From Phycisphaerae bacterium (GTDB lineage: Bacteria > Planctomycetota > Phycisphaerae > UBA1845 > PWPN01), in contig PWPN01000171.1 in assembly GCA_003557125.1 (NCBI GenBank), forward strand, positions 1 through 13,766: 13,766 nt of DNA, in the 5' to 3' direction. The position numbers and the translations under genes are program-made. The notes under the pieces were generated by a model, which saw nothing but the letters and a program-made list of their open reading frames with translations, had not been told where the DNA came from and did not search any database. Of the stretch, positions 1,975 to 13,766 are shown in pieces (the first letter of the stretch is position 1; each line of letters opens with the position of its first letter).

Positions 1975-2316
1975 TCAGTGGTCGGTCTTCCTGGAGCGCG
2001 TCCGTTTGGATTTGTCGGATCCGTCCTCCTGCTCCAGGCCCTCGTGCGGTTCCTCGCTTTCCTCGTACGATTCGGGTTCGAGCTCGGAGGAGTATTCGCG
2101 CTCGGCGATGACGTCTTCGAGTCGCTCTTTCTCGGCGACGAGCTGTTCGAGGGTGAGGCTCTCGACGTCGAGCGTGCTGCACGCGGGCAGCTCGATGCCG
2201 TGCTTGCGAAGATACGCATCGACCTGGGTTTTGTTCTTCTTGTACAGGTAAAAGCCTACTGCGGCTGTGCCGAGGCCGACAAAGAATCCGGTTACGTGCT
2301 GCAAGGTCGTTTTCAT
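1975..2316 (-). CDS. Small acidic single-span membrane protein of the iron operon
   Basis: The 113-residue product has an N-terminal hydrophobic helix with Gly motifs (about residues 8-24: TGFFVGLGTAAVGFYLY), then YKKNK and a charged helix. A likely coiled coil spans residues 54-75 (LEQLVAEKERLEDVIAE). The tail is very acidic (residues 75-101) and ends in a basic patch. I chose the ATG at 2316 because AAAGGTG sits directly upstream; an in-frame TTG at 2331 would lie over that site. It begins 27 bases after the stop of the upstream HMA-like gene, so it is the last gene of the operon. The N-terminal layout recalls small DUF-type membrane proteins found beside HMA2-domain P-type ATPases, but I cannot name the family with certainty. 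The acidic tail could bind cations; that is inference. Confidence 0.7.
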   Translation of the reverse strand: MKTTLQHVTGFFVGLGTAAVGFYLYKKNKTQVDAYLRKHGIELPACSTLDVESLTLEQLVAEKERLEDVIAEREYSSELEPESYEESEEPHEGLEQEDGSDKSKRTRSRKTDH

Positions 2317-2343
2317 TTCGTCACCTTTCAAATGGTATGCGCC

Positions 2344-3189
2344 CTATGTTTGCGTCTTATCCTTGTCTCCAATACGGAGCGGGATTCCTTTCTCCCACGG
2401 GCCCAGCGCATCGAGCATCTTGTCGTGAAGACGGCTGACTTCCTGGAGATTGCTCAAGAGGTCGCCCTTGGGGCTTCCCGCTCCGACAAAAGTATGGAGC
2501 AAGCTGGGCAGAACTTCCAGCCATGCGCGCCAGCCGGTCCGGCGGATCGCCGAGGCGGTGACCTCGGGCGCATCTCCGTTTCCGTCAGGCCTTACTTCCA
2601 CAGCCTCGGCCCGGCTCTCCAGCAGGTGCCGGCCGAAGGATGCGAACCAGGTCAATAACGCCGATCGCCAGGCATGGCCGCGTAACATCCCGACCGCCAG
2701 GTACGCGACCGAGACGACCTCGGGGTGATACGCACCTTGCTGGCGAAGCTCCCGGACGGCATGCGAGAGGACGGCCGAGCCGGTCGCCATCCCCGCCGCG
2801 ACATCGAGCGCCTTGAGGTTGGAGGGCTTGACCCCGAACGATCTGCAAAGCCAGGAAGCCAGCAGGATCGCCCCCGAGGCTGCGACCGAGGCGGTCAGCG
2901 GATCGTGCGGGGGGCCGGATTCGATCCGGACGGGGCGATTGTCGTGCTGCAAGGACATGGCCAATGCGATACGGACCAGCAGTTCCTCCCGGCGGATGAC
3001 CATCGGGTCGAACTTCACGAGGATCGTGCGGACCGCAGGGGTGTAGCGCAGCGGGGCGATGCCCGCATGCGAGCGAAGCTCCCGCTCGAAAGCGGCCGGG
3101 TCGGGCAGTGGGTGCGAAAGCTCGGCCCGGAGCCTGGCGGGCAGCTCATGCAGCACGGTCACAGTCAATGCATTGTCATCCTGCATCAT
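2344..3189 (-). CDS. HMA-like R-x-R domain membrane protein, ATPase accessory
   Basis: The 281-residue product starts with an HMA2-like ferredoxin-fold domain. It has HELPARLRAE at residues 14-23, the counterpart of PGRxR in its neighbours, then FERELRSHAGI and TPAVRTILVKFDP at 50-62. Hydrophobic segments follow at roughly 97-115, 128-142 and 157-182. It resembles the front part of a P1B ATPase without catalytic domains. The start is ATG at 3189, whose ATGA overlaps the ATPase stop and suggests translational coupling; GGGAAG lies upstream. The stop is TAG, and the frame stays open through 2331 into the next gene. A role as a partner of the ATPase or in organising iron storage is inferred from position. 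The domain family is fairly sure and the function is not. Confidence 0.75.
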   Translation of the reverse strand: MMQDDNALTVTVLHELPARLRAELSHPLPDPAAFERELRSHAGIAPLRYTPAVRTILVKFDPMVIRREELLVRIALAMSLQHDNRPVRIESGPPHDPLTASVAASGAILLASWLCRSFGVKPSNLKALDVAAGMATGSAVLSHAVRELRQQGAYHPEVVSVAYLAVGMLRGHAWRSALLTWFASFGRHLLESRAEAVEVRPDGNGDAPEVTASAIRRTGWRAWLEVLPSLLHTFVGAGSPKGDLLSNLQEVSRLHDKMLDALGPWEKGIPLRIGDKDKTQT

Positions 3190-5396
3190 GATTGCTTCCC
3201 GGTAACATCGTGCCACAACAGGCGGCCCGAATTGGCGACGACGGCGACCGTGCAGGCATTGTGCAGCACGGCGCCCCAGAATACCGGCAAGACGCCCATG
3301 GCCGAGAGGACCAGCCCGACGGTGTTGACGCCGATGGAGATCCCGAAATTCTGCCGGACGATGTCCATGGTCTTTTTCCCGAGGCGGATCACGCCCGGGA
3401 TCAGCAGCGGGTCGTCGCCGGCGATGGTGATGTCGGCAGCTTCCATAGCCACATCGGTGCGGCTCGCGCCGGTGGCGATGCCCACGTTGGCATAGGCCAG
3501 GGCGGGTGCGTCGTTGATGCCGTCGCCCACCATGACCACGTTCGTGCCGCGCGACTGAAGGCGGAGGATCATCTCGGCTTTGTCCTCGGGCAGCGCCTCG
3601 GCGTGGTAGCGATCCATGGCCATCCGGTCGGCGACGACGGAGGCATGCTGCTCGACGTCGCCGGTCAACAGGACGATGTCGTCCATGCCCGTCATGCGCA
3701 GGCGGTTCAGCGCTTTCTTCATGTTCTCGCGGAGCGCGTCCTGCACGCCCAGCACGCCAAGCAGTCGGCCGTCGCCCGCGACGTACAGGATATTTTCGCC
3801 CGAGGCGACCAGCTTGTGCACCGCTACCGTCGCCGAGGCGAGGTCCACACCGCTCTCTTCCATGTGCCGCCGACTGCCGACGCGGACGGTTTGCCCGTCG
3901 ACTTCGACCTCCACGCCCCGGGCCACGACGACGTCGGCGGTCCCGTGCTGGGGGATGGCATAGCCGCTACGGCGGACTTTTTCGAGGATGGCCGCTGCCA
4001 TCGGGTGCGAGGACGTTTCCTCGGCGGCCGCAGCCAGTTCCAGCAGTCGCCGTGAGGTTATGCCCGTCTCAAGCGGGACGACGCTGAGCACCTGGGGGCG
4101 CCCCTCGGTGAGCGTGCCGGTCTTGTCGAGGATGAGCGTGTCGGCCTCGTCCATCAGTTCGAGATAGCTGCCGCCCTTGATGAGGATCCCGTGCCGTGCC
4201 CCGGTGCAGATCGAGGCCGACAGGGCCGTCGCGGTCGAAAGGCGCACGCCGCAGGAATAATCGATGATCAGCATGTTCAGCGCGCGGTCCGCTCTTCGGG
4301 TCACGGCATAGACCAGGGCCGCCAGGGCGAAGTTGACGGGGATGAACGCAGCCGAAAACTTGTCGGCAAAGGCCTGAATGGGGGCCTTGTGCTGGGCGGC
4401 TTCCTCGACCATGTGGACGATGCGCCCCACAGCCGTCTGGTCGCCCACGCGATGGGCGCGTACCCTGACCGAGCCGTTCTTGACGACGCTGCCGGCATAG
4501 ACCTCGTCATTCGCACCGCAGGTGACCGGCATGAACTCGCCCGTGATCGAAGCCTGGTCGACGGCAGCCTGCCCAGCCTCGACGATGCCGTCCACGCTGA
4601 TCTTCTGGCCGGTGTGCACTGCGATCAGGTCGCCGACCTCCAGCTCCTGGACGGTGACCTTGATCTGCGCGCCGTCGGGGAGGACTTTCCAGACGTCCTG
4701 CTCGCCGACCGCGAGCATCTCGCGGATCGCGCGACGTGTACGACCCATCGTCCAGCCGGTCAGTAGCTCGGCGATGTCGGCCAGCCAGATGATCGTCAAC
4801 GCCGCGACGTCCTTGCCGGCCAGGACGCTCGAAAGGATGGCTGTGGCGCTGAGCGTGTCGGCATTGGGGCGACGCGTGTGTTTCAGGGATCCAAGGCCGC
4901 TGCGAAAGATCGGTGCCGCCAATGAGAGGGCCGTCATCGCAGGCATGGAAAACAGGCGACGCAGGAAAGGCACCGAGGCCTTGTGGCCGGATTGACGCAT
5001 CCAGATCATGGCCAGCGCGACCGACGTCACAGCCACCCGTATGGCCATGTCCCTGAGCGGCTCATCCTGCAACCTGCGTTCGGTCACGGTCAGACTGGCC
5101 TGTTTCTGCCTTTCGGACTTGAACGCCTGAAGCGAATAGCTGCCGATGATCTGCTCGACGAGATCGCAGGCCATCTCGTGCGTGAGCCGTTCGGGATCGA
5201 ACCGCACCAGGACATTGCCCGTCAAGCTCGTGACGCGCGCTTCGGTGATGCCCGGAGCTTCCCGCAGCCGCGCCTGGATCCGGTCGGCGCGATCGGACAG
5301 GTGGCGCAGCGCACGCGAACTGATACGGACGCGCCCGGGCAGTGCGTGAACGATCTCGCAGTGCAGCAACGGCTTGGGTTTACGACCAAATTGCAT
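3186..5396 (-). CDS. P1B-type heavy-metal ATPase with N-terminal R-x-R domain, FezB-like
   Basis: The 736-residue product is a complete metal-transporting P-type ATPase. An N-terminal HMA2-like domain has HALPGRVRIS (residues 17-26) in place of a CxxC motif. The actuator TGE is at 285-287, and the transport helix motif is Ser-Cys-Gly at 381-383. The phosphorylation site DKTGT is at 424-428, SSHP at 462-465, TGD at 578-580 and GDGINDAP at 624-631. The last helix carries LHNAC and NSGRLL. From memory, P1B-6 ATPases carry Ser-Cys-Ala here and include FezB of ferrosomes; Mn/Fe/Co exporters of the CtpC type also have HMA2 domains. Hence the metal is probably Fe(II), or Mn/Co. Its start overlaps the end of the preceding gene by 17 bases, with AAGGTGA upstream. 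The family is certain; the ferrosome role is inferred. Confidence 0.9.
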   Translation of the reverse strand: MQFGRKPKPLLHCEIVHALPGRVRISSRALRHLSDRADRIQARLREAPGITEARVTSLTGNVLVRFDPERLTHEMACDLVEQIIGSYSLQAFKSERQKQASLTVTERRLQDEPLRDMAIRVAVTSVALAMIWMRQSGHKASVPFLRRLFSMPAMTALSLAAPIFRSGLGSLKHTRRPNADTLSATAILSSVLAGKDVAALTIIWLADIAELLTGWTMGRTRRAIREMLAVGEQDVWKVLPDGAQIKVTVQELEVGDLIAVHTGQKISVDGIVEAGQAAVDQASITGEFMPVTCGANDEVYAGSVVKNGSVRVRAHRVGDQTAVGRIVHMVEEAAQHKAPIQAFADKFSAAFIPVNFALAALVYAVTRRADRALNMLIIDYSCGVRLSTATALSASICTGARHGILIKGGSYLELMDEADTLILDKTGTLTEGRPQVLSVVPLETGITSRRLLELAAAAEETSSHPMAAAILEKVRRSGYAIPQHGTADVVVARGVEVEVDGQTVRVGSRRHMEESGVDLASATVAVHKLVASGENILYVAGDGRLLGVLGVQDALRENMKKALNRLRMTGMDDIVLLTGDVEQHASVVADRMAMDRYHAEALPEDKAEMILRLQSRGTNVVMVGDGINDAPALAYANVGIATGASRTDVAMEAADITIAGDDPLLIPGVIRLGKKTMDIVRQNFGISIGVNTVGLVLSAMGVLPVFWGAVLHNACTVAVVANSGRLLWHDVTGKQS

Positions 5397-5805
5397 CGGG
5401 AATAGTCACCTTCGGATCGAATACCGGGCGCTGGCGCGTCTGCGCGCGGACCCATTTCTCAAGTTGACGGGCCACGCGTGCGGCCCGGCCGTTGGGCATG
5501 CCCCTGAGGCGATCACGATTGCGACGGAGCATTTCGAGCAACGCGTGCAGGAACCCCAGGATGTCGGACTCCTGAAGTACGTCGGCATCGTAGACGATCA
5601 GCAGGCTGCCCGTTCTGCGGTCGCTTCGGGCCGAGACGATGCCCTGCGGGGCGGCTATCACGCGTTCCAATATCTCGGCCACGTTGAGCCAGTCGTCGGG
5701 GATCCTTTTCAGGAGCGGGATGCGCAGACGAAGTCGGCCCGGCAGCCTGTGGAGGACCCGGGGACGCACCTGTGTCCAGAACCCGATGTCTTCCAGAAGC
5801 TTCAT
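5380..5805 (-). CDS. Small R-x-R/HMA2-like protein of the iron operon
   Basis: The 141-residue product has HRLPGRLRLRIPLLKR (residues 19-34) and TGSLLIVYDADVL (65-77), the same two strands seen in the HMA2 domain of the neighbouring ATPase. It lacks any CxxC metal motif and any clear membrane helix. A long basic helix follows (residues 83-127) with many Arg. I chose the ATG at 5805 because it overlaps the previous stop as ATGA; a GTG at 5847 is possible but reaches further into the upstream gene. The end overlaps the ATPase start. The four adjacent genes with this motif suggest a multi-protein assembly. Ferrosome-associated proteins are recalled to share an R-x-R motif, which supports but does not prove that role. 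Confidence 0.72.
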   Translation of the reverse strand: MKLLEDIGFWTQVRPRVLHRLPGRLRLRIPLLKRIPDDWLNVAEILERVIAAPQGIVSARSDRRTGSLLIVYDADVLQESDILGFLHALLEMLRRNRDRLRGMPNGRAARVARQLEKWVRAQTRQRPVFDPKVTIPDAIWS

Positions 5806-6407
5806 GAATCGTTCTGCCTTCCCGACATCAATCCGTTCACCGCCCACCAGAGCAGTGTAAAGCCGGCTGACAACGCGATCGAGCGCCTCCGCACGAGTTG
5901 CTGGACGCCGAGTCCTGCCAGGGCCAGAAACAGGATCGTCTTCATATCGAGCATGCCGCCGGTCTGCTCGTAGATCGCGCGATTCATCGCCCGTGCCAGT
6001 TCGCGCAGCTCGCGTGCGAACTTGGCTTCCACGTCGCCGTAAATCTGCTTTTCCAGCCCCAGCAGACGGATCAGGGCCGCTGCCAGAACGTCCGGGAAAA
6101 CGCGCTTCGGGTTGTGCTTGACCAGGATGGTGCCGCTGACGATGTTGACGTCGACGTCCTCGACGCCTTCGATACCGAGAAGCGTTTTCCTGAGCTTCTG
6201 AGAAGCTGAGGTCATGCCGACCAGCATCGGTACGCGGAACCGGGTGCGCCCGGGAATCGAATGGACGACCGACAGTACACTGGGCATTTTCAATAGGGGT
6301 GAACTAAACCGGGATTCCTCTTGGTCCGATTCCGCTTTTTTTTCAGCGGACTTTTTTTTTCTGCGGTGGAGCAGACCGGTAATCAGCAGGCTCGTAAGGA
6401 TGTGCAT
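5802..6407 (-). CDS. R-x-R/HMA2-like membrane protein, first gene after feoAB
   Basis: The 201-residue product begins with a short hydrophobic segment (MHILTSLLITGLL), then a Lys/Glu-rich linker encoded by A9 and A8 runs (residues 15-30). The HMA2-like domain follows, with HSIPGRTRFRVP at 49-60 and VNIVSGTILVKHNP at 87-100. An amphipathic region leads to two membrane helices (about 156-170 and 177-193). It belongs to the same motif family as the three genes after it. The ATG at 6407 has only a weak GGAAAAAAGA site upstream. The gene lies 91 bases after the feoB stop, and that gap may contain a weak promoter. Its stop overlaps the next start as ATGA. It may be a ferrosome-type structural or ATPase-partner protein; that is inference. 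Confidence 0.75.
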   Translation of the reverse strand: MHILTSLLITGLLHRRKKKSAEKKAESDQEESRFSSPLLKMPSVLSVVHSIPGRTRFRVPMLVGMTSASQKLRKTLLGIEGVEDVDVNIVSGTILVKHNPKRVFPDVLAAALIRLLGLEKQIYGDVEAKFARELRELARAMNRAIYEQTGGMLDMKTILFLALAGLGVQQLVRRRSIALSAGFTLLWWAVNGLMSGRQNDS

Positions 6408-6498: not shown

Positions 6499-8028
6499 TC
6501 AGCTTCCCCTCATCAGGTAGACCGTCTGAGCGACAGCCAGGCAGACCGTGACGGCCACGGCCAGGGGGATCAGGTTTGCCAGCAAGGTCCATTTTTTCGA
6601 CCGCGTCTCCGACCAGATCGTCAACGTGGTGGTCGTGCATGGGTAGTGTAGCAGGGCAAAAAGCATCAGGCAGATCGCTGTCAGGAGCGTCCATCCATTG
6701 TCCCGGAACAGCTGCCCCGGGTCGTCCAGCTCGATCATGCGCCCGAGATTCATGTAGCCCATGATGACCGTGGGAATGACGATCTCGTTGGCCGGGATCG
6801 CGAAAATGAATGCGAGAAGGATGACACCGTCCAGGCCGATGGCATGGCCGATCGGTCCCAACGCATCGGCCATGGTCGAAAACAGGGTCCCTTCGCCGTA
6901 TCGAATCGCCCCCAGCAGCCAGATGATCCCCCCGGCCGGTGCCGCACAGATGATCGCCCGCCGGAGGACGAACAGCGTCCTGTCGATCAGCGACGTATAG
7001 AGAATGCGGCCGATCTGCGGACGGCGGTAGGGGGGGAGTTCCAACGTGAAGGCTGACGGCTCGCCTTTGAGGATCGTTTTCGAGAGCGCCAGTGAGACGA
7101 GCAGGGTGACGGCGACCCCCAGCAGCGTCGCACCGGTGATTGCAGCGACGGCCACCACCGTCGCGAGGTGTGCCGGCACGCTGGCGGCCACGAAGAGCGA
7201 GGCGACCAGGATCAGCATCGGCCATCGACCGTTGCAGGGCACGAAGTTATTCGTCAGGATCGCGATGATCCGTTCGCGCGGCGAATTGATGATCCGGCAG
7301 GCGATGACGCCGGCCGCGTTGCAGCCGAACCCCATCGACATCGTCAGCGACTGCTTGCCGTGCGCTCCGACCCGTCGAAAGATCCGATCCAGATTGAAGG
7401 CGACACGCGGCAGATAGCCGAAGTCCTCCAGCAGTGTGAACAGCGGGAAAAAGATCGCCATCGGCGGCAGCATCACGGAAACGACCCACGCCAGTCCGAG
7501 ATAGACGCCGTCGATCAGGAATCCGCTCAGCGCCGTCGGCCAATAAAGACGATCGGCCAACGCGTGCAGTCCTTCGTAAAGGCTGTACGACAGCCATCCC
7601 GGAGCCGATACGCCGAGGTAATCGGCCAACCATGCGCTCAGGCCTCCCTCTTCGATGAGGACGCCTGCCAGAAAGGTACTCGGGATGTTCGATCCGATGA
7701 TCGTGATCCAGAAGATGGCCGCCAGCAGCGCCACCATGATGGGGATGCCGAACGCACGACTGGTCAGAATGCGGTCGAGGCGCTGCTGCCAGGAAGGTGA
7801 GCCGGCACGGGTCTTTTTTACGGACCGATCGACGATGGCACGCGCCCGGTCGTAGACAGCCTCGGTGACGCGGTCGTGGACCGTCCAGCCGAACCGGGCA
7901 TGATGCTTGTCTGCCCGTTCGAGAATCGCATGCAACAATGGAGTATTCAAGGACACCCAGCTATCTCCTGATTCCAACTGTCTGCGTATCCCTGCTATCC
8001 GCGGATGCCCACTCCCTGCGGATGCCAA
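6499..8028 (-). CDS. feoB: FeoB C-terminal membrane part, separated from the G domain by an in-frame TAG
   Basis: This open frame of 509 codons carries the membrane half of the ferrous iron transporter FeoB. It starts with the end of the GDI helical region (residues 28-71), then about nine to eleven membrane helices. Gate motif one is GFGCNAAGVIACR at 233-245 with NNFVPCNGR at 260-268, gate two is FAIPANEIVIP at 409-419, and HYPCTTTT is at 461-468. It is in the same reading frame as the upstream FeoA/G-domain segment and follows its TAG directly. TTG at 8028 is merely the first possible start codon; no ribosome binding site precedes it, so independent translation looks doubtful. Residues 1-24 are encoded by a 17-bp tandem repeat. 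The membrane part itself shows no further damage, so the gene is either freshly broken or rescued by readthrough. Confidence 0.85.
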   Translation of the reverse strand: MASAGSGHPRIAGIRRQLESGDSWVSLNTPLLHAILERADKHHARFGWTVHDRVTEAVYDRARAIVDRSVKKTRAGSPSWQQRLDRILTSRAFGIPIMVALLAAIFWITIIGSNIPSTFLAGVLIEEGGLSAWLADYLGVSAPGWLSYSLYEGLHALADRLYWPTALSGFLIDGVYLGLAWVVSVMLPPMAIFFPLFTLLEDFGYLPRVAFNLDRIFRRVGAHGKQSLTMSMGFGCNAAGVIACRIINSPRERIIAILTNNFVPCNGRWPMLILVASLFVAASVPAHLATVVAVAAITGATLLGVAVTLLVSLALSKTILKGEPSAFTLELPPYRRPQIGRILYTSLIDRTLFVLRRAIICAAPAGGIIWLLGAIRYGEGTLFSTMADALGPIGHAIGLDGVILLAFIFAIPANEIVIPTVIMGYMNLGRMIELDDPGQLFRDNGWTLLTAICLMLFALLHYPCTTTTLTIWSETRSKKWTLLANLIPLAVAVTVCLAVAQTVYLMRGS

Positions 8029-8040
8029 CTATCTCCGGAT
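7956..8040 (-). repeat. Five-copy 17-bp degenerate tandem repeat inside feoB
   Basis: On the minus strand five 17-base units follow one another without gaps, near the consensus ATCCGCAGATAGTTGGC. Units begin at 8040, 8023, 8006, 7989 and 7972. Seventeen is not a multiple of three, so each unit is read in a different codon phase. Units one and four share a phase: unit one has the in-frame TAG and unit four has CAG at the same place. The array encodes a loop between FeoB's GDI region and membrane part. Confidence 0.85.
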
Positions 8041-9132
8041 AACAGTCCGGTCCGGCCGTATGCCATCGCTCAACGATCCGCTGCCGATCCTCCCGGCCAG
8101 GTCGGCCAGGACGCCGCTGACCATCTCCTGGCGGAGGCGTTCGTCGCAGCCGTCGATGAGCCGCATCGCGATCCAGCGTGCATTGGGAAGATCCGGCAAC
8201 GCCCGTTCGATCCATGGCAGGACGTCGTCGACAGCCTGCTGGAGTTCGGGGTCGTAGGCGGTGCGCTTCGGCCGGGTCTGGATACGTGCGGTGGCCAGGT
8301 CGTGGATCGTTTGCCGCAGCTCTTCCATACCCTCTCCGTGACGGGCCGCGGTCAGCACGACCGGGACGCCGAGCTCTTCGCTCAAGGCTTCGGCGTCGAT
8401 TTCCACGCCCCAGCGTCGCGCTTCATCGATCAGGTTCACGCAGACCATTGCCCGATCCGTGATCTCCAGGACTTGGAGAATGAGATTCAGGTTCCGCTCC
8501 AGGGTTGTGGCATCGGCGACCACGACGGTGCAGTCCGGCGCACCGAACAAGACGTAGTCGCGTGCGATCTCTTCGTCCGTGGAAGCTGACAGCAGGGAAT
8601 ACGTCCCCGGCAGGTCGACGATCCGGAAGGCTTGCCCCTGATAGGTCCAGCTCCCTTCGACGCGGGTGACGGTTTTGCCAGGCCAATTGCCCACGTGCTG
8701 GCGGAGGCCTGTCAATGCATTGAACACGGTGCTCTTGCCGGTATTCGGGTTGCCCGCCAGGGCGACGGTCAGCTCCTGGGTCGGGTTCGGCGGGTCGTTA
8801 ACCTTGTCGGTCAAGGGAAGGCCTGTCGAATGCGGCTGGCACCCGTTGCAGCCCGGTGATGCTCCGCAGGATCGGGCAGATATCTTTTCATCTTTGGGCA
8901 TGTCCGGACGGTCCGATATCCGAATCAGTTCCGCATCGTCACGTCGAAGCGCGATCTGCGAACCTTTCACCCGGTAGGCGACCGGGTCGCCGCTCGGGCT
9001 GGCGAAGGAGATGGTCACCTCCGCCCCCGGGACGAAGCCCAGGTCCACCAGGCGGCGTCGCAGCAAGCCGTTGGCGACGATGCCTTGCACATAGGCGGAT
9101 TCCCCGTCCGTAAGCGATGCGAGTGTCTTCAT
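8029..9132 (-). CDS. feoAB: FeoA-FeoB fusion, N-terminal part: FeoA domain plus FeoB G domain, ended by TAG
   Basis: The 367-residue segment opens with a FeoA SH3-like domain (residues 1-73; LGFVPGAEVTI and YRVKGSQIALRRDDAELI). A linker follows with three cysteines (C89, C95, C98), then the FeoB GTPase. Its motifs are G1 GNPNTGKST 127-135, G2 Thr154 in NWPGKT, G3 DLPG 173-176, G4 NLID 233-236 and G5 TAAR 261-264, followed by the start of the GDI helical domain. FeoB takes up Fe(II) across the inner membrane, and FeoA supports it. I chose ATG at 9132 because GAGG lies five bases upstream and the FeoA homology starts there, although the frame is open further upstream. The TAG at 8031-8029 is in frame with the membrane half; a full FeoAB would span 6499-9132, about 877 residues. 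A GTPase without membrane part could not transport iron. Confidence 0.88.
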   Translation of the reverse strand: MKTLASLTDGESAYVQGIVANGLLRRRLVDLGFVPGAEVTISFASPSGDPVAYRVKGSQIALRRDDAELIRISDRPDMPKDEKISARSCGASPGCNGCQPHSTGLPLTDKVNDPPNPTQELTVALAGNPNTGKSTVFNALTGLRQHVGNWPGKTVTRVEGSWTYQGQAFRIVDLPGTYSLLSASTDEEIARDYVLFGAPDCTVVVADATTLERNLNLILQVLEITDRAMVCVNLIDEARRWGVEIDAEALSEELGVPVVLTAARHGEGMEELRQTIHDLATARIQTRPKRTAYDPELQQAVDDVLPWIERALPDLPNARWIAMRLIDGCDERLRQEMVSGVLADLAGRIGSGSLSDGIRPDRTVIRR

Positions 9133-9222: not shown

Positions 9223-9284
9223 TGTGCATGACTTGAATTCACGTGAGTTTGGCTGGATCGAATCGACTTGCATGCAACTCGAAC

Positions 9285-9328
9285 CCGTAAGGAAGCGCGT
9301 TCGATAAGACGCAACCGCTTCCTTACGG
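9285..9328. repeat. Long perfect inverted repeat, hairpin of unknown role
   Basis: CCGTAAGGAAGCG (9285-9297) is followed by its exact reverse complement CGCTTCCTTACGG (9316-9328). A further GTT/AAC pairing inside follows a one-base bulge. There is no T-run on either side. A second small perfect hairpin, GCGTC-TCG-GACGC, lies at 9331-9343. The pair sits between the divergent feo and tRNA promoters. Confidence 0.6.
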
Positions 9329-9541: not shown

Positions 9542-9628
9542 GGAGAGGTGTCCGAGTGGCTGAAGGAGCAGCCTTGGAAAGGCTGTGTACGGCTTGCCGT
9601 ACCGGGGGTTCGAATCCCCCCCTCTCCG
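9542..9628 (+). tRNA. tRNA-Ser (GGA)
   Basis: An 87-nt class II tRNA. The acceptor stem GGAGAGG (9542-9548) pairs with CCTCTCC (9621-9627), with discriminator G at 9628. The anticodon stem CAGCC/GGCTG encloses the loop TTGGAAA, giving anticodon GGA for UCC/UCU serine codons. The long variable arm is TACGG-CTTG-CCGTA, and the T arm is GGGGG-TTCGAAT-CCCCC. The CCA end is not encoded and must be added after transcription. Confidence 0.95.
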
Positions 9629-10100: not shown

Positions 10101-11516
10101 ATGTACATTGAACAGTATTATGTCGATGGTATTGCCCATCTTTCCTACCTGGTCGGTGGCGCGAATACATGTGCGATCATCGATCCGAAGCGCGACATCG
10201 AAGAATACATCACGGCTGCCAAAAGGCTGCATCTTAAGATCACGCACATTCTGGAAACTCACCTGCACGCCGACTTTATCTCCGGGCACATGGATCTCGC
10301 CCGGCGGACCGGCGCGACCATTTACGCACCGAAATCGGGAAAATGCACCTACGACCATGTGGCTGTCGGCCAAGGCGACAGTTTCGATCTCGAGAACATG
10401 CACTTCGAGGTCCTGGATACGCCGGGCCACACGCCCGACGGCGTCTGCTACGTGGTCACGGATCGCTCCCGGGGCGATACGCCTGTCGCGGTCTTTACGG
10501 GCGACACCCTTTTTGTGGGGGACGTGGGCCGTCCCGACCTGTTTCCCGGCCGGGGGGACGAGTTGGCCTCGCAGTTGTACGCCAACCTGAACGATAAGCT
10601 TCTGAAGCTGCCCGACGCGTGCTTTGTTTATCCTGCCCACGGGGCGGGTTCACTCTGCGGCAAGGCCATGGGCGCCATGCGCGTCAGCACCATCGGCTAC
10701 GAACGCCGTCATAACGCGGCCCTTCAACATGCCACGGAGACGGAGTTCAAGGAGGCGCTGTTGAGTGGCATGCCGGAAGCGCCGGACCACTTTGCACGCT
10801 GTTCGGAGATCAACCGCAAAGGCCCCGCGCTGGTGGAGGAATTGCCCGCGTCGCGCCCGCTTTCGCCCGGCGCACTGCAACAACTTGCCGACCAGGGCCA
10901 CGTTGTGCTCGACACGCGCGATTACGCAGCCTTCGGCGGCGCGCACGTTCCTGGTGCCTGGAACATCGACGCGGCCCATAATTTTTCGACCTTCGCCGGC
11001 TGGCTTCTGCCACAGGACAAGCCGATCCTGCTCGTGGCTGCCTCGGACGACAGGGTCGCCCAGTTGACTACCATGCTGCGCCGGGTCGGCCATGACCACG
11101 TTGCCGGCTATCTCGAACAGGGGATGCAACCGTGGATCGTCAGCGGCATGCCCCTCGAGCATATCCCCACGATGACGATCCGCGAGGTTCAACAGCTTTG
11201 TGAGGATGGAAAACAGGCGATGACCATCCTGGACGTGCGCGCTTCGAGCGAGTGGGATCGCAGCCATATCGAGGGCGCGGTGCATATGCCGTTACCTGAC
11301 ACCCGCACGCGCCACGAGACATTGGACCGCGACGCGACGACGGTGCTGGTATGCAAGAGCGGTGCGCGTGCCTGCACAGCCGGAAGCATTTTGCAGCAGC
11401 ACGGCTTCAGAAAGCTGGCGGTCATGGCCGGCGGCATGACAGCATGGACGGCGGCGGGTTTTGCCCCCACCTGCGCCACCTGCGCGTTGCCCCACGGGCC
11501 GAGAACCCAATATTAA
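10101..11516 (+). CDS. cstB: CstB-like persulfide dioxygenase with two rhodanese domains
   Basis: The 471-residue product begins with a metallo-beta-lactamase-fold persulfide dioxygenase. THLHADFISGH spans residues 53-63, TPGHT 108-111 and FTGDTLFVGDVGRPDL 132-147; likely Fe(II) ligands are H54, H110 and D135. PAHGAGSLCGK at 178-188 places C186 where S. aureus CstB has its extra catalytic cysteine. A first rhodanese domain (about 255-350) has VAASDD where the active loop should be and lacks cysteine. The second (about 358-455) has the active loop CKSGARA with C418. The enzyme should oxidise cytoplasmic persulfide and pass sulfane sulfur to sulfite, forming thiosulfate. AAGGAGGTGACC directly precedes the ATG. 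This three-domain order matches CstB, so the activity is likely; the symbol is by analogy. It is the first gene of a tight operon with sulfur transporters. Confidence 0.9.
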   Translation: MYIEQYYVDGIAHLSYLVGGANTCAIIDPKRDIEEYITAAKRLHLKITHILETHLHADFISGHMDLARRTGATIYAPKSGKCTYDHVAVGQGDSFDLENMHFEVLDTPGHTPDGVCYVVTDRSRGDTPVAVFTGDTLFVGDVGRPDLFPGRGDELASQLYANLNDKLLKLPDACFVYPAHGAGSLCGKAMGAMRVSTIGYERRHNAALQHATETEFKEALLSGMPEAPDHFARCSEINRKGPALVEELPASRPLSPGALQQLADQGHVVLDTRDYAAFGGAHVPGAWNIDAAHNFSTFAGWLLPQDKPILLVAASDDRVAQLTTMLRRVGHDHVAGYLEQGMQPWIVSGMPLEHIPTMTIREVQQLCEDGKQAMTILDVRASSEWDRSHIEGAVHMPLPDTRTRHETLDRDATTVLVCKSGARACTAGSILQQHGFRKLAVMAGGMTAWTAAGFAPTCATCALPHGPRTQY

Positions 11517-11530
11517 GGAGGCCCCTTGCG

Positions 11531-12052
11531 ATGGATCTTTTCACGATGGACCGATGGTCGCCCTACGCCGTGGGGATCGGTATCGGTGTTCTGAGCTGCC
11601 TTGCCTTTCTATTGTCGAATAAACCGATCGGATGTTCGACGGCCTTCGTGCGAAGTGCGGGTCTCCTGGAGCGGCTTTTTCGCGGCCGAAAGGTCGATGA
11701 CAAGCCGTATTACAGGAAGTTTGCACCCCGGATCGACTGGGAATGGATGCTCGTTCTCGGAGTCCTCGTCGGCGCGCTGGCATCTGCTTGGCTCGCCGGC
11801 CAATTCGAATGGCGCTGGGTGCCGCACAGGTGGGCTGCCGCGGCCGGTACAAGCGCGTCGATCCGCTGGTTGGTCGCATTGCTGGGTGGCTTCTGCGTCG
11901 GGTTTGGTGCGCGCTGGGCAGGCGGCTGCACGAGCGGCCATGGGATCAGCGGCACGCTCCAATTGGCCGTCAGCAGCTGGATCGCGGCTGTGGGCTTCTT
12001 TGCAGGCGGCATCGCGACCGCCATGCTCATCTACCACGTCATCCTGGGATGA
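11531..12052 (+). CDS. YeeE/YedE-family sulfur transporter, first half
   Basis: The 173-residue membrane protein has about four to five helices. It carries the family's conserved cysteine motifs: KPIGCSTAFVRSAG near residues 35-48 and GGCTSGHGISG near residues 134-144. YeeE/YedE (TsuA-type) proteins pass thiosulfate or related sulfur species through the inner membrane, using cysteines along the path. Full-length members have about 350 residues; this is one of a pair of half-size proteins, as in PmpA/PmpB. AAGGAGG overlapping the upstream stop gives a good start at ATG 11531, and the next gene follows after 12 bases. The substrate is inferred from the persulfide enzyme upstream and could be thiosulfate, sulfite or persulfide. 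Confidence 0.87.
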   Translation: MDLFTMDRWSPYAVGIGIGVLSCLAFLLSNKPIGCSTAFVRSAGLLERLFRGRKVDDKPYYRKFAPRIDWEWMLVLGVLVGALASAWLAGQFEWRWVPHRWAAAAGTSASIRWLVALLGGFCVGFGARWAGGCTSGHGISGTLQLAVSSWIAAVGFFAGGIATAMLIYHVILG

Positions 12053-12064
12053 GGAGGCCTTGTC

Positions 12065-12619
12065 ATGCTGAAAGCATTGCACGACCAGAAAGGTGCCCAG
12101 CTGCTTTTGGGCTTCCTGTTGGGCGTCGGTTTCGGCTTTCTGTTACAAAAAGGCAGCGTCACCTACTACGACGTTATTATCAATCAGCTTCTTTTGAAGG
12201 ACTTCACCGTCGTCAAAATCATGCTGACAGCCATGGTCACCGGGATGATCGGCGTCCACCTGCTCGTGGGCCTCGGACTGGCGCAATTGCACCCCAAGCC
12301 AGGGTCCTGGGGAACCCTCATTCCCGGCGCACTGATTTTCGGCGTCGGGTTCGGCATCCTGGGTTACTGTCCCGGGACGGCCGTCGGCGCGGTCGGTCAT
12401 GGCGCGCTGGACGCCCTTGCAGGCGGAGTGCTCGGCATGCTGGCCGGCGCGGCCGTTTTTGCCGCCCTCTACCCGAAGCTCGCGTCCCTTCTTCAGAAAG
12501 GAGATTTCGGAGATGCGACCTTCCCGCGGCTGTTCGGACTTCGTCCGTGGCCTGTCGTCATTGTCGTCGCGCTGATGGTGACAGGGTTGCTCTACGCGAT
12601 AGAAAACGCGGGTCTGTAA
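12065..12619 (+). CDS. YeeE/YedE-family sulfur transporter, second half
   Basis: The 184-residue membrane protein has about five helices. FGFLLQKGSV lies at residues 22-31, and the conserved GYCPGTAVGAVGHG at about 99-112 carries the family cysteine. It pairs with the preceding half-size protein, and together they would equal a full YeeE/YedE channel. The ATG at 12065 follows GAGGAGG by eight bases. The C-terminus has an extra membrane helix after a charged loop (LLQKGDFGD). It lies in the same operon as the persulfide dioxygenase, which fits uptake or release of thiosulfate-like compounds. Confidence 0.87.
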   Translation: MLKALHDQKGAQLLLGFLLGVGFGFLLQKGSVTYYDVIINQLLLKDFTVVKIMLTAMVTGMIGVHLLVGLGLAQLHPKPGSWGTLIPGALIFGVGFGILGYCPGTAVGAVGHGALDALAGGVLGMLAGAAVFAALYPKLASLLQKGDFGDATFPRLFGLRPWPVVIVVALMVTGLLYAIENAGL

Positions 12620-12644
12620 GAGGCCGTAACGGCAAGGGAAGCGC

Positions 12645-13766
12645 ATGGCCTACCGTATCCTTACTGGAGTTGTCCCGTGGATTCGCGGCTACACGCGAAG
12701 CGATTTGCGCAGCGACCTGCTCGCGGGCGCGATCGTCGCCGTGATGCTGGTTCCCCAGGCGATGGCTTATGCGAACCTTGCGGGTCTGCCGCCGGTGATG
12801 GGGCTTTATGCGTCCACGATTCCCCTGGCGCTCTATGCGCTTGTCGGCTCTTCAAGGCATCTCGCTGTAGGGCCGGTGGCGATCATATCCATGGTCGTTT
12901 TTGCACGGTGTTCGCTTATCGCTGAACCCGGAACTCCTGAATTCATCCGTGCCGTGCTCCTGCTGAGCGCCATGGTCGGCATCATTCAAGCAGCGATGGG
13001 GCTGCTGCGACTGGGTTTCCTGGTCAATTTCCTGTCTCACGCCGTCATCAGCGGGCTGACCTCGGCCGCAGCCATTCTCATTGCGTTGAGCCAGCTCAAG
13101 CACCTTTTGGGGATTCCACTTGCTCCGCACCATTCGGCCTTCGGTTTTCTATTCGAGGCCGGGCGGCGCGTCGGTGAAACGCATCTCGCGAGCCTGGTGC
13201 TCGGCCTTGGAAGTATGGTTGTCCTGATTGTATGCAGGCGCCGCTGGCCTCGCTTCCCGATTGCCATTCTGGTGGTACTAACCGCCACCTTGCTTGTTCG
13301 CGTGCTGCGCCTCGACGCAGCGGGCGTCAGCATAGTCGGTACCGTGCCGGCCGGCCTGCCCCGCCTCTCCCTGCCGCAGGGGGATATCGAGGCGATCCGC
13401 GCATTGCTTCCGGCTGCCCTGGTCATTGTGCTTATCGGCTTCGTTGAATCCATCTCCATTGCACAGGTCATTGCCGTGAAAGGCCGATATCGCGTTCACC
13501 CCAACCGGGAACTGGGGGCACTGGGTTTTGCGAATATCGCGGCGGCCTTTTTCAGCGGCTATCCCGTCACCGGCGGTTTTTCCCGCACAGCCGTCAATTA
13601 TCAGGCCGGGGCAAGGTCCGGAATGTCATCCCTTGTCACTGTCGCGCTTGTCCTGCTGACCCTGCTCCTGCTCACCCCGCTGTTTTATTACCTCCCCTAC
13701 GCCGTGCTGGCCGCGATTGTGATCGTTGCGGTGGCCGACCTGGTTGACTTCAGGGCCGCCTGGAAA
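12645..13766 (+). CDS. SulP-family anion permease, 3' end outside the window
   Basis: The first 374 codons of a SulP transporter are present, open to the last base. The N-terminal family signature is clear: SDLLAGAIVAVMLVPQAMAYANLAGLP in the first helices, SSRHLAVGPVAIIS, then NFLSHAVISGLTSAAA and GYPVTGGFSRTAVNYQAGA around residues 305-323. About ten helices are visible; the last helices and the cytoplasmic STAS domain expected in this family lie beyond the window. SulP proteins exchange sulfate, bicarbonate or other anions. The position 25 bases after the YeeE pair suggests a role with sulfate or sulfite made from persulfide oxidation. The ATG at 12645 has AAGGGAAG upstream. The family is certain and the substrate is inferred. 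Confidence 0.92.
   Translation, partial: MAYRILTGVVPWIRGYTRSDLRSDLLAGAIVAVMLVPQAMAYANLAGLPPVMGLYASTIPLALYALVGSSRHLAVGPVAIISMVVFARCSLIAEPGTPEFIRAVLLLSAMVGIIQAAMGLLRLGFLVNFLSHAVISGLTSAAAILIALSQLKHLLGIPLAPHHSAFGFLFEAGRRVGETHLASLVLGLGSMVVLIVCRRRWPRFPIAILVVLTATLLVRVLRLDAAGVSIVGTVPAGLPRLSLPQGDIEAIRALLPAALVIVLIGFVESISIAQVIAVKGRYRVHPNRELGALGFANIAAAFFSGYPVTGGFSRTAVNYQAGARSGMSSLVTVALVLLTLLLLTPLFYYLPYAVLAAIVIVAVADLVDFRAAWK

What the first reader, a model, noticed from the sequence alone, without database searches (positions are those of the whole stretch)
8026..8034. Single in-frame amber codon splits an otherwise intact FeoAB fusion
The FeoA/G-domain segment ends at TAG 8031-8029, and the membrane half continues in the same frame from the next codon. 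All GTPase and gate motifs are intact on both sides. The second half has no ribosome binding site and only a TTG. This is either a very recent nonsense break, amber readthrough or suppression, or a true two-protein FeoB. Ferrous uptake would depend on which applies.
Basis: seen in the sequence. Interest (0 to 1): 0.8.

Follow-up and report, generated by a model that had tools for sequence, protein, structure and literature searches.

The report
A genuine two-gene FeoB iron transporter
The stop codon that seems to cut an iron transporter gene in half is the normal end of the first of two neighbouring genes, an arrangement shared by relatives in many bacterial phyla, so nothing is broken or recoded here.

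Summary
The TAG at 8031-8029 (minus strand) is real and the frame is open on both sides, but it is a normal gene end, not a nonsense break or recoded codon. FeoA plus the FeoB G domain is one protein (9132-8029, 367 aa). Two database proteins from a 7,529-bp contig, one residue different from the window in each, have the same end and predicted start. The nearest homologues agree. All 8 close relatives among 60 related genomes have two genes in different frames. Of 80 named best-match loci, 58 are two-gene, 20 fused, 2 lack upstream sequence. The in-frame look reflects a 17-bp tandem repeat (8040-7957) filling the gap. The split falls inside the helical GDI domain, so the halves probably assemble into one transporter (inferred). 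Nine searches of open papers showed no description of such a split FeoB; one paper suspects FeoA-NFeoB proteins without a membrane part to be sequencing errors.

The parts
8029..9132 (-). Gene 1: FeoA domain fused to FeoB G domain and, by alignment, the first part of the helical GDI domain; 367 aa, ends at TAG 8031-8029
   Evidence: Pfam FeoA and FeoB_N; near-identical 367-aa protein P0121 from another contig; homologues end at or within a few residues of the same column
8917..9126 (-). FeoA domain (residues 3-72)
   Evidence: PF04023, 65.3 bits
8305..8769 (-). FeoB_N GTPase domain (residues 122-276)
   Evidence: PF02421, 204.5 bits, 200.6 bits
8029..8031 (-). TAG, the normal stop of gene 1
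   Evidence: conserved end in A4
7957..8040 (.). 17-bp tandem repeat, 4.9 copies, covering the stop and the gap between the genes
   Evidence: TRF score 70; 0 of 100 shuffles reach 70
7965..7969 (-). Shine-Dalgarno AGGAG of gene 2, in the last repeat copy
   Evidence: 8-nt spacing to GTG
6499..7956 (-). Gene 2: FeoB membrane half with, by alignment, the rest of the GDI domain at its N terminus; 485 aa, GTG start 7956-7954, TGA stop
   Evidence: Gate and FeoB_C; near-identical P0001, 485 aa; start aligned with predicted starts of relatives
7204..7479 (-). Gate domain, best-scoring of two stretches (residues 160-251)
   Evidence: PF07670, 80.7 bits
6991..7134 (-). FeoB_C domain (residues 275-322)
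   Evidence: PF07664, 57.5 bits

Best explanation
This is a two-gene FeoB. Gene 1 makes a soluble FeoA-GTPase protein and gene 2 makes the membrane pore, from its own GTG with AGGAG (shown by sequence and comparison, not by protein data); both are probably translated from one mRNA (inferred). The cut falls inside the helical GDI domain, so each protein carries about half of it, and the two most likely reassemble through that domain into a GTP-gated ferrous iron importer (inferred). The genes look in-frame because a 17-bp unit holding the ribosome binding site and stop was duplicated (4.9 copies). Taking away four copies leaves stop and start 7 nt apart and out of frame, close to the overlapping layout of the relatives (inferred).
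For: (1) The database holds P0121 (367 aa) and P0001 (485 aa), both listed with a longest contig of 7,529 bp, so probably one contig and not the window's 13,766-bp one. They differ from the window at one residue each (P295S, L286I), with the same end and the same predicted start. (2) 12 homologues of gene 1 end at or within a few residues of the window's stop; 8 of 13 homologues of gene 2 have predicted starts at the column of the window's GTG and 5 have short extensions. (3) 8 of 8 close relatives among 60 related genomes have two genes in different frames: 5 ATGA, 2 GTGA, 1 with ATG 10 nt past the first base of the stop. (4) Of 80 named loci, 58 are two-gene, 20 fused, 2 lack upstream sequence. 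(5) Of the 120 listed homologues of the membrane half (own included), 116 lack the G domain, although full-length FeoB was eligible by length. (6) SD and GTG. (7) In a natural fusion, P0033, FeoB_Cyto spans 300-386; the window-type G protein P0121 aligns to 334 (homologue P0153 to 345) and the window-type membrane protein P0001 from 351 (P0011 from 350). The model has a loop at 341-344 between helices.
Against: No protein or RNA data; homologue starts are gene-caller predictions. The repeat copies are diverged (10-14 of 17 positions alike), so the expansion history is inferred. Single-chain relatives exist in the same clade (20 of 80 named loci; 4 of 120 listed proteins carry a G domain). The GDI placement rests mainly on one natural fusion: FeoB_Cyto passes its cut-off in P0033 but not in fusions P0063 (no match) or P0083 (20.2 against 23.4 bits); the window's own gene 1 end and membrane N terminus gave no FeoB_Cyto match even at E 5, and only 1 of 6 membrane N-termini did, weakly (E 0.056).
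Confidence: 0.95

Rival explanations
1. Recent nonsense mutation in a single-chain FeoAB gene (pseudogene in the making).
For: One stop separates two frames that are otherwise open.
Against: Same end in a second, non-identical source; ends and predicted starts shared by homologues at 56-82% identity; 8 of 8 close relatives are two-gene; the stretch between stop and GTG is tandem repeat without counterpart in the natural fusion.
Confidence: 0.02
2. Amber readthrough, suppression or pyrrolysine, giving some full-length FeoAB.
For: The frames are in register, so a low level of readthrough would give a full-length protein.
Against: Relatives mostly have the genes in other frames (8 of 8 near; 51 of 57 wider). 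No PylS over cut-off (19.3 against 178.15 bits). 18 tRNAs found, none with a CUA anticodon. Another predicted window gene, 2344-3216 (no Pfam match), also ends in TAG. The genome is 55.7% complete and the contig may be mis-binned, so these absences are weak.
Confidence: 0.02
3. Assembly or sequencing error in a single gene.
For: Draft genome in 392 contigs.
Against: Second source with the same two proteins; homologues agree.
Confidence: 0.01

Closest known systems
Single-chain FeoB (TIGR00437) and FeoAB fusions such as Bacteroides fragilis FeoAB (PMC8980893, section 4 and passages read)
   Same: Same domains in the same order: FeoA, G domain, helical GDI domain, Gate, FeoB_C.
   Different: Here they are two polypeptides, cut inside the GDI domain. 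Each half alone scores below the TIGR00437 cut-off (208.3 and 162.4 against 315.65 bits), covering model positions 1-166 and 249-594.
FeoA-NFeoB proteins without TM region (44 with FeoA and G domain only, 31 with FeoA and intact NFeoB, InterPro 2021; PMC8980893 section 4)
   Same: Gene 1 here is of this general architecture.
   Different: That paper suggested they may be sequencing errors; here the TM region is the next gene and the layout is shared by relatives. I did not look at that paper's own sequences.
Database proteins named 'FeoB small GTPase domain-containing protein' and 'ferrous iron transporter B'
   Same: Homologues of the two halves, annotated as separate proteins.
   Different: These searches give no gene context. 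In the named loci most two-gene systems have a G domain without FeoA; FeoA-G plus a separate membrane gene is the minority form (2 of 58, by an HMM built here).

Membership tests
FeoB ferrous iron transporter | FeoB_N GTPase domain | tested here: met
   PF02421 200.6 bits
FeoB ferrous iron transporter | Gate and FeoB_C membrane domains | tested here: met
   PF07670 80.7 and PF07664 57.5 bits
FeoB ferrous iron transporter | Single chain scoring above the TIGR00437 cut-off | tested here: not met
   208.3 and 162.4 bits for the two chains, cut-off 315.65; the halves cover complementary parts of the model
FeoB ferrous iron transporter | GTP-dependent ferrous iron transport | not testable with these tools
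   needs a transport assay
Two-gene FeoB clade (as drawn here) | Separate membrane gene with its own start next to the G-domain gene | tested here: met
   GTG 7956 with AGGAG; start aligned in A1 and A5
Two-gene FeoB clade (as drawn here) | Membrane domain falls in the clade apart from ordinary FeoB | tested here: met
   103 rows against only 5 ordinary FeoB rows, SH-aLRT 100; quick LG+G4 tree
Amber recoding (pyrrolysine or suppressor) | PylS or a tRNA with CUA anticodon in the genome | tested here: inconclusive
   none found, genome 55.7% complete

The most novel reading that the evidence does not exclude
A deep, widespread clade of FeoB works as a two-subunit transporter whose GTPase is a separate, exchangeable protein. 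Cutting the GDI domain in two lets the cell set or regulate coupling of GTPase to pore by association, and the TM-less FeoA-NFeoB proteins once suspected as errors are its regulatory subunits.
Probability: 0.35. Interest if true: 0.6.

Novelty: new variant of a known kind. Interest (0 to 1): 0.38.

Why it matters
In the paper passages I read FeoB is treated as one polypeptide, and how its GTPase couples to the pore is, to my knowledge, unsettled. A natural two-subunit form, cut within the domain that links them, gives a soluble GTPase and a separate pore that could be studied apart and recombined. It also shows that TM-less FeoA-NFeoB sequences in databases need not be errors, and warns that a single-chain model with a high cut-off misses FeoB when it lies in two genes.

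Tried and rejected
Rejected: nonsense break, readthrough and assembly error (see rivals). Whether the 17-bp unit is a dispersed repeat: in the own genome 10 hits at up to 3 mismatches, 2 in the window and 8 single ones on other contigs; the reversed-pattern control gave 2, so there is a mild excess that I did not follow. Conserved P-type ATPase neighbour: only 4 of 80 named loci have one in the stretch held, many stretches being short, so no link shown. Pfam on membrane N-termini alone: FeoB_Cyto in 1 of 6, below cut-off. The 120 listed G-domain homologues cannot show fused forms, because that search admits only 0.55-1.75 times the query length, so I do not count them as evidence for the split. 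Alignment A2 mixed the two halves (seen) and was not used further. No PDB chain matched the membrane half at E 0.001; 55 distinct sequences matched the FeoA-G half. Phylum sample: none of 391 other genomes had a match at E <= 1e-150, a strict cut on a drawn sample that shows patchiness, not absence; within the family 5 of 12 others match at 1e-100. In the tree, protein rows without gene context were counted as two-gene if they lack a G domain, and M-only loci were left out of the count of changes.

Full report
Observation. On the minus strand the FeoA/G-domain frame ends at TAG 8031-8029 and the membrane frame is open from the next codon to 6499. Pfam finds FeoA (65.3 bits) and FeoB_N (200.6) before the stop, and Gate (80.7) and FeoB_C (57.5) after it, all above cut-off.

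Not an error and not a recent break. The protein search returned near-copies of the window's two proteins, P0121 (367 aa) and P0001 (485 aa), both listed with a longest contig of 7,529 bases, so probably from one contig other than the window's. They differ from the window at one residue each and have the same end and the same predicted start. In alignment A4 the 12 G-domain homologues given end at or within a few residues of the window's last residue. In A5, of 13 membrane homologues (82 to 63% identical), 8 begin at the column of the window's GTG and 5 have short extensions; these starts are gene-caller predictions. Of the 120 listed membrane-half homologues (own protein included), 116 have no G domain; 3 are full fusions and P0038 carries part of one. 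Full-length FeoB was within the length range of that search.

Relatives. Of 60 related genomes searched, 57 had some match; 8 had the close type, 56-60% identical. All 8 have a G-domain gene ending in TGA followed by a separate membrane gene in another frame (7 at +2, 1 at +1), with ATGA in 5, GTGA in 2, and ATG 10 nt on in 1. Among 80 named loci, motif-based sorting gave 57 two-gene, 20 fused and 3 without a G gene found; HMM-based sorting gave 58, 20 and 2, the last two with only 324 and 13 bases upstream. In the 57, frames were 38 at +2, 13 at +1 and 6 in frame, and 29 had the NTGA overlap. A Shine-Dalgarno 4-mer precedes 23 of 57 chosen starts against 133 of 3781 start codons inside the genes. 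The closest named relative, Candidatus Hydrogenedentota L044 (66%), also has an in-frame pair: TGA, then ATG 30 nt on.

Tree. In a quick LG+G4 tree of 108 membrane domains, 103 rows form a clade apart from 5 ordinary FeoB rows (support 100); with so few outgroup rows the clade's bounds are rough. Two-gene and fused forms need at least 12 changes. The window groups with P0002 (98), and in a 16-row clade (100) with one Hydrogenedentota and one Riflebacteria locus, not with its own family's copies L007-L009 or L012. This points to transfer, or to a wrongly binned contig; either leaves the main result unchanged.

Why it looks in-frame. TRF finds a 17-bp tandem repeat, 4.9 copies, at 7957-8040; its score of 70 is not reached in 100 shuffles, maximum 59. 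The last copy holds the AGGAG and runs up to the GTG; the first holds the TAG. From the first base of the stop to the first base of the GTG is 75 nt = 4 x 17 + 7. Taking four copies away leaves 7 nt and a different frame, close to the relatives' layout. This history is inferred; the copies agree at 10-14 of 17 positions.

How it likely works. In the natural fusion P0033 (820 aa) the FeoB cytosolic helical domain spans 300-386 (39.9 bits); in fusions P0063 and P0083 that domain is not found or is below cut-off. The window-type G protein P0121 aligns to 334 of P0033 and its homologue P0153 to 345; the window-type membrane protein P0001 aligns from 351 and P0011 from 350. In the AlphaFold model of P0033 (mean pLDDT 79.8, pTM 0.66, 23 sequences) the cut falls at a short loop, 341-344, between helices 337-340 and 345-359. 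The split G protein P0125 matches only positions 1-45 of the 90-position domain; the window's own pieces gave no match to it. So the two chains each probably carry about half of the GDI domain, and assembly through it is the likely mechanism. That step is inferred.

Amber recoding. No PylS match above cut-off; 18 tRNAs in 17 loci, none with a CUA anticodon; another predicted window gene, 2344-3216, ends in TAG. The genome is 55.7% complete, so these absences are weak, but the comparative evidence does not depend on them.

Literature. Nine searches of the open library listed no paper that I recognised, from titles, abstracts' beginnings or the passages opened, as describing FeoB split between G domain and membrane domain; subscription papers are not held, so priority is not claimed. 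PMC8980893 (section 4 and passages) reports 31 FeoA-NFeoB sequences without a TM region and suggests sequencing errors. PMC8749426 (passages) treats fusions of FeoA and FeoB; 'split' does not occur in its text. PMC10353542 (passages) concerns separation of feoA from feoB, a different split. PMC8351635 (passages) concerns methanogens and speaks of FeoB as one protein. Other papers were seen only in the search listings.

Noticed in passing
window 9285-9328: Perfect 13-nt inverted repeat with 18 nt between the arms, and a near-palindrome at 9263-9282, upstream of gene 1; possible regulatory or terminator structure, no Rfam match there at gathering cut-offs.
   Followed up: partly
window 1975-6407 (-): Downstream, mostly overlapping genes: two HMA_2 proteins, a P-type ATPase with HMA_2, and two proteins (290 and 118 aa) without Pfam match.
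   Followed up: partly
window 10101-13766 (+): Sulfur gene group on the other strand: metallo-beta-lactamase/rhodanese protein, two Sulf_transp proteins that match different parts of the profile, and a sulfate permease cut by the contig end.
   Followed up: no
window 9542-9628 (+): tRNA-Ser (GGA) between the feo genes and the sulfur group.
   Followed up: yes
P0180: 611-aa protein joining an iron-dependent repressor domain (PF02742), FeoA and FeoB_N without a membrane part: a regulator fused to the split G domain.
   Followed up: no
G000:C2 (window contig): Its FeoB groups with a Hydrogenedentota locus, and its sulfate permease has no match at 1e-20 in 12 other family genomes; transfer or a mis-binned contig.
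   Followed up: partly
G000, 8 contigs other than C2: Eight single copies of the 17-bp unit at 3 mismatches against 2 for the reversed-pattern control; mild excess, unexplained.
   Followed up: no
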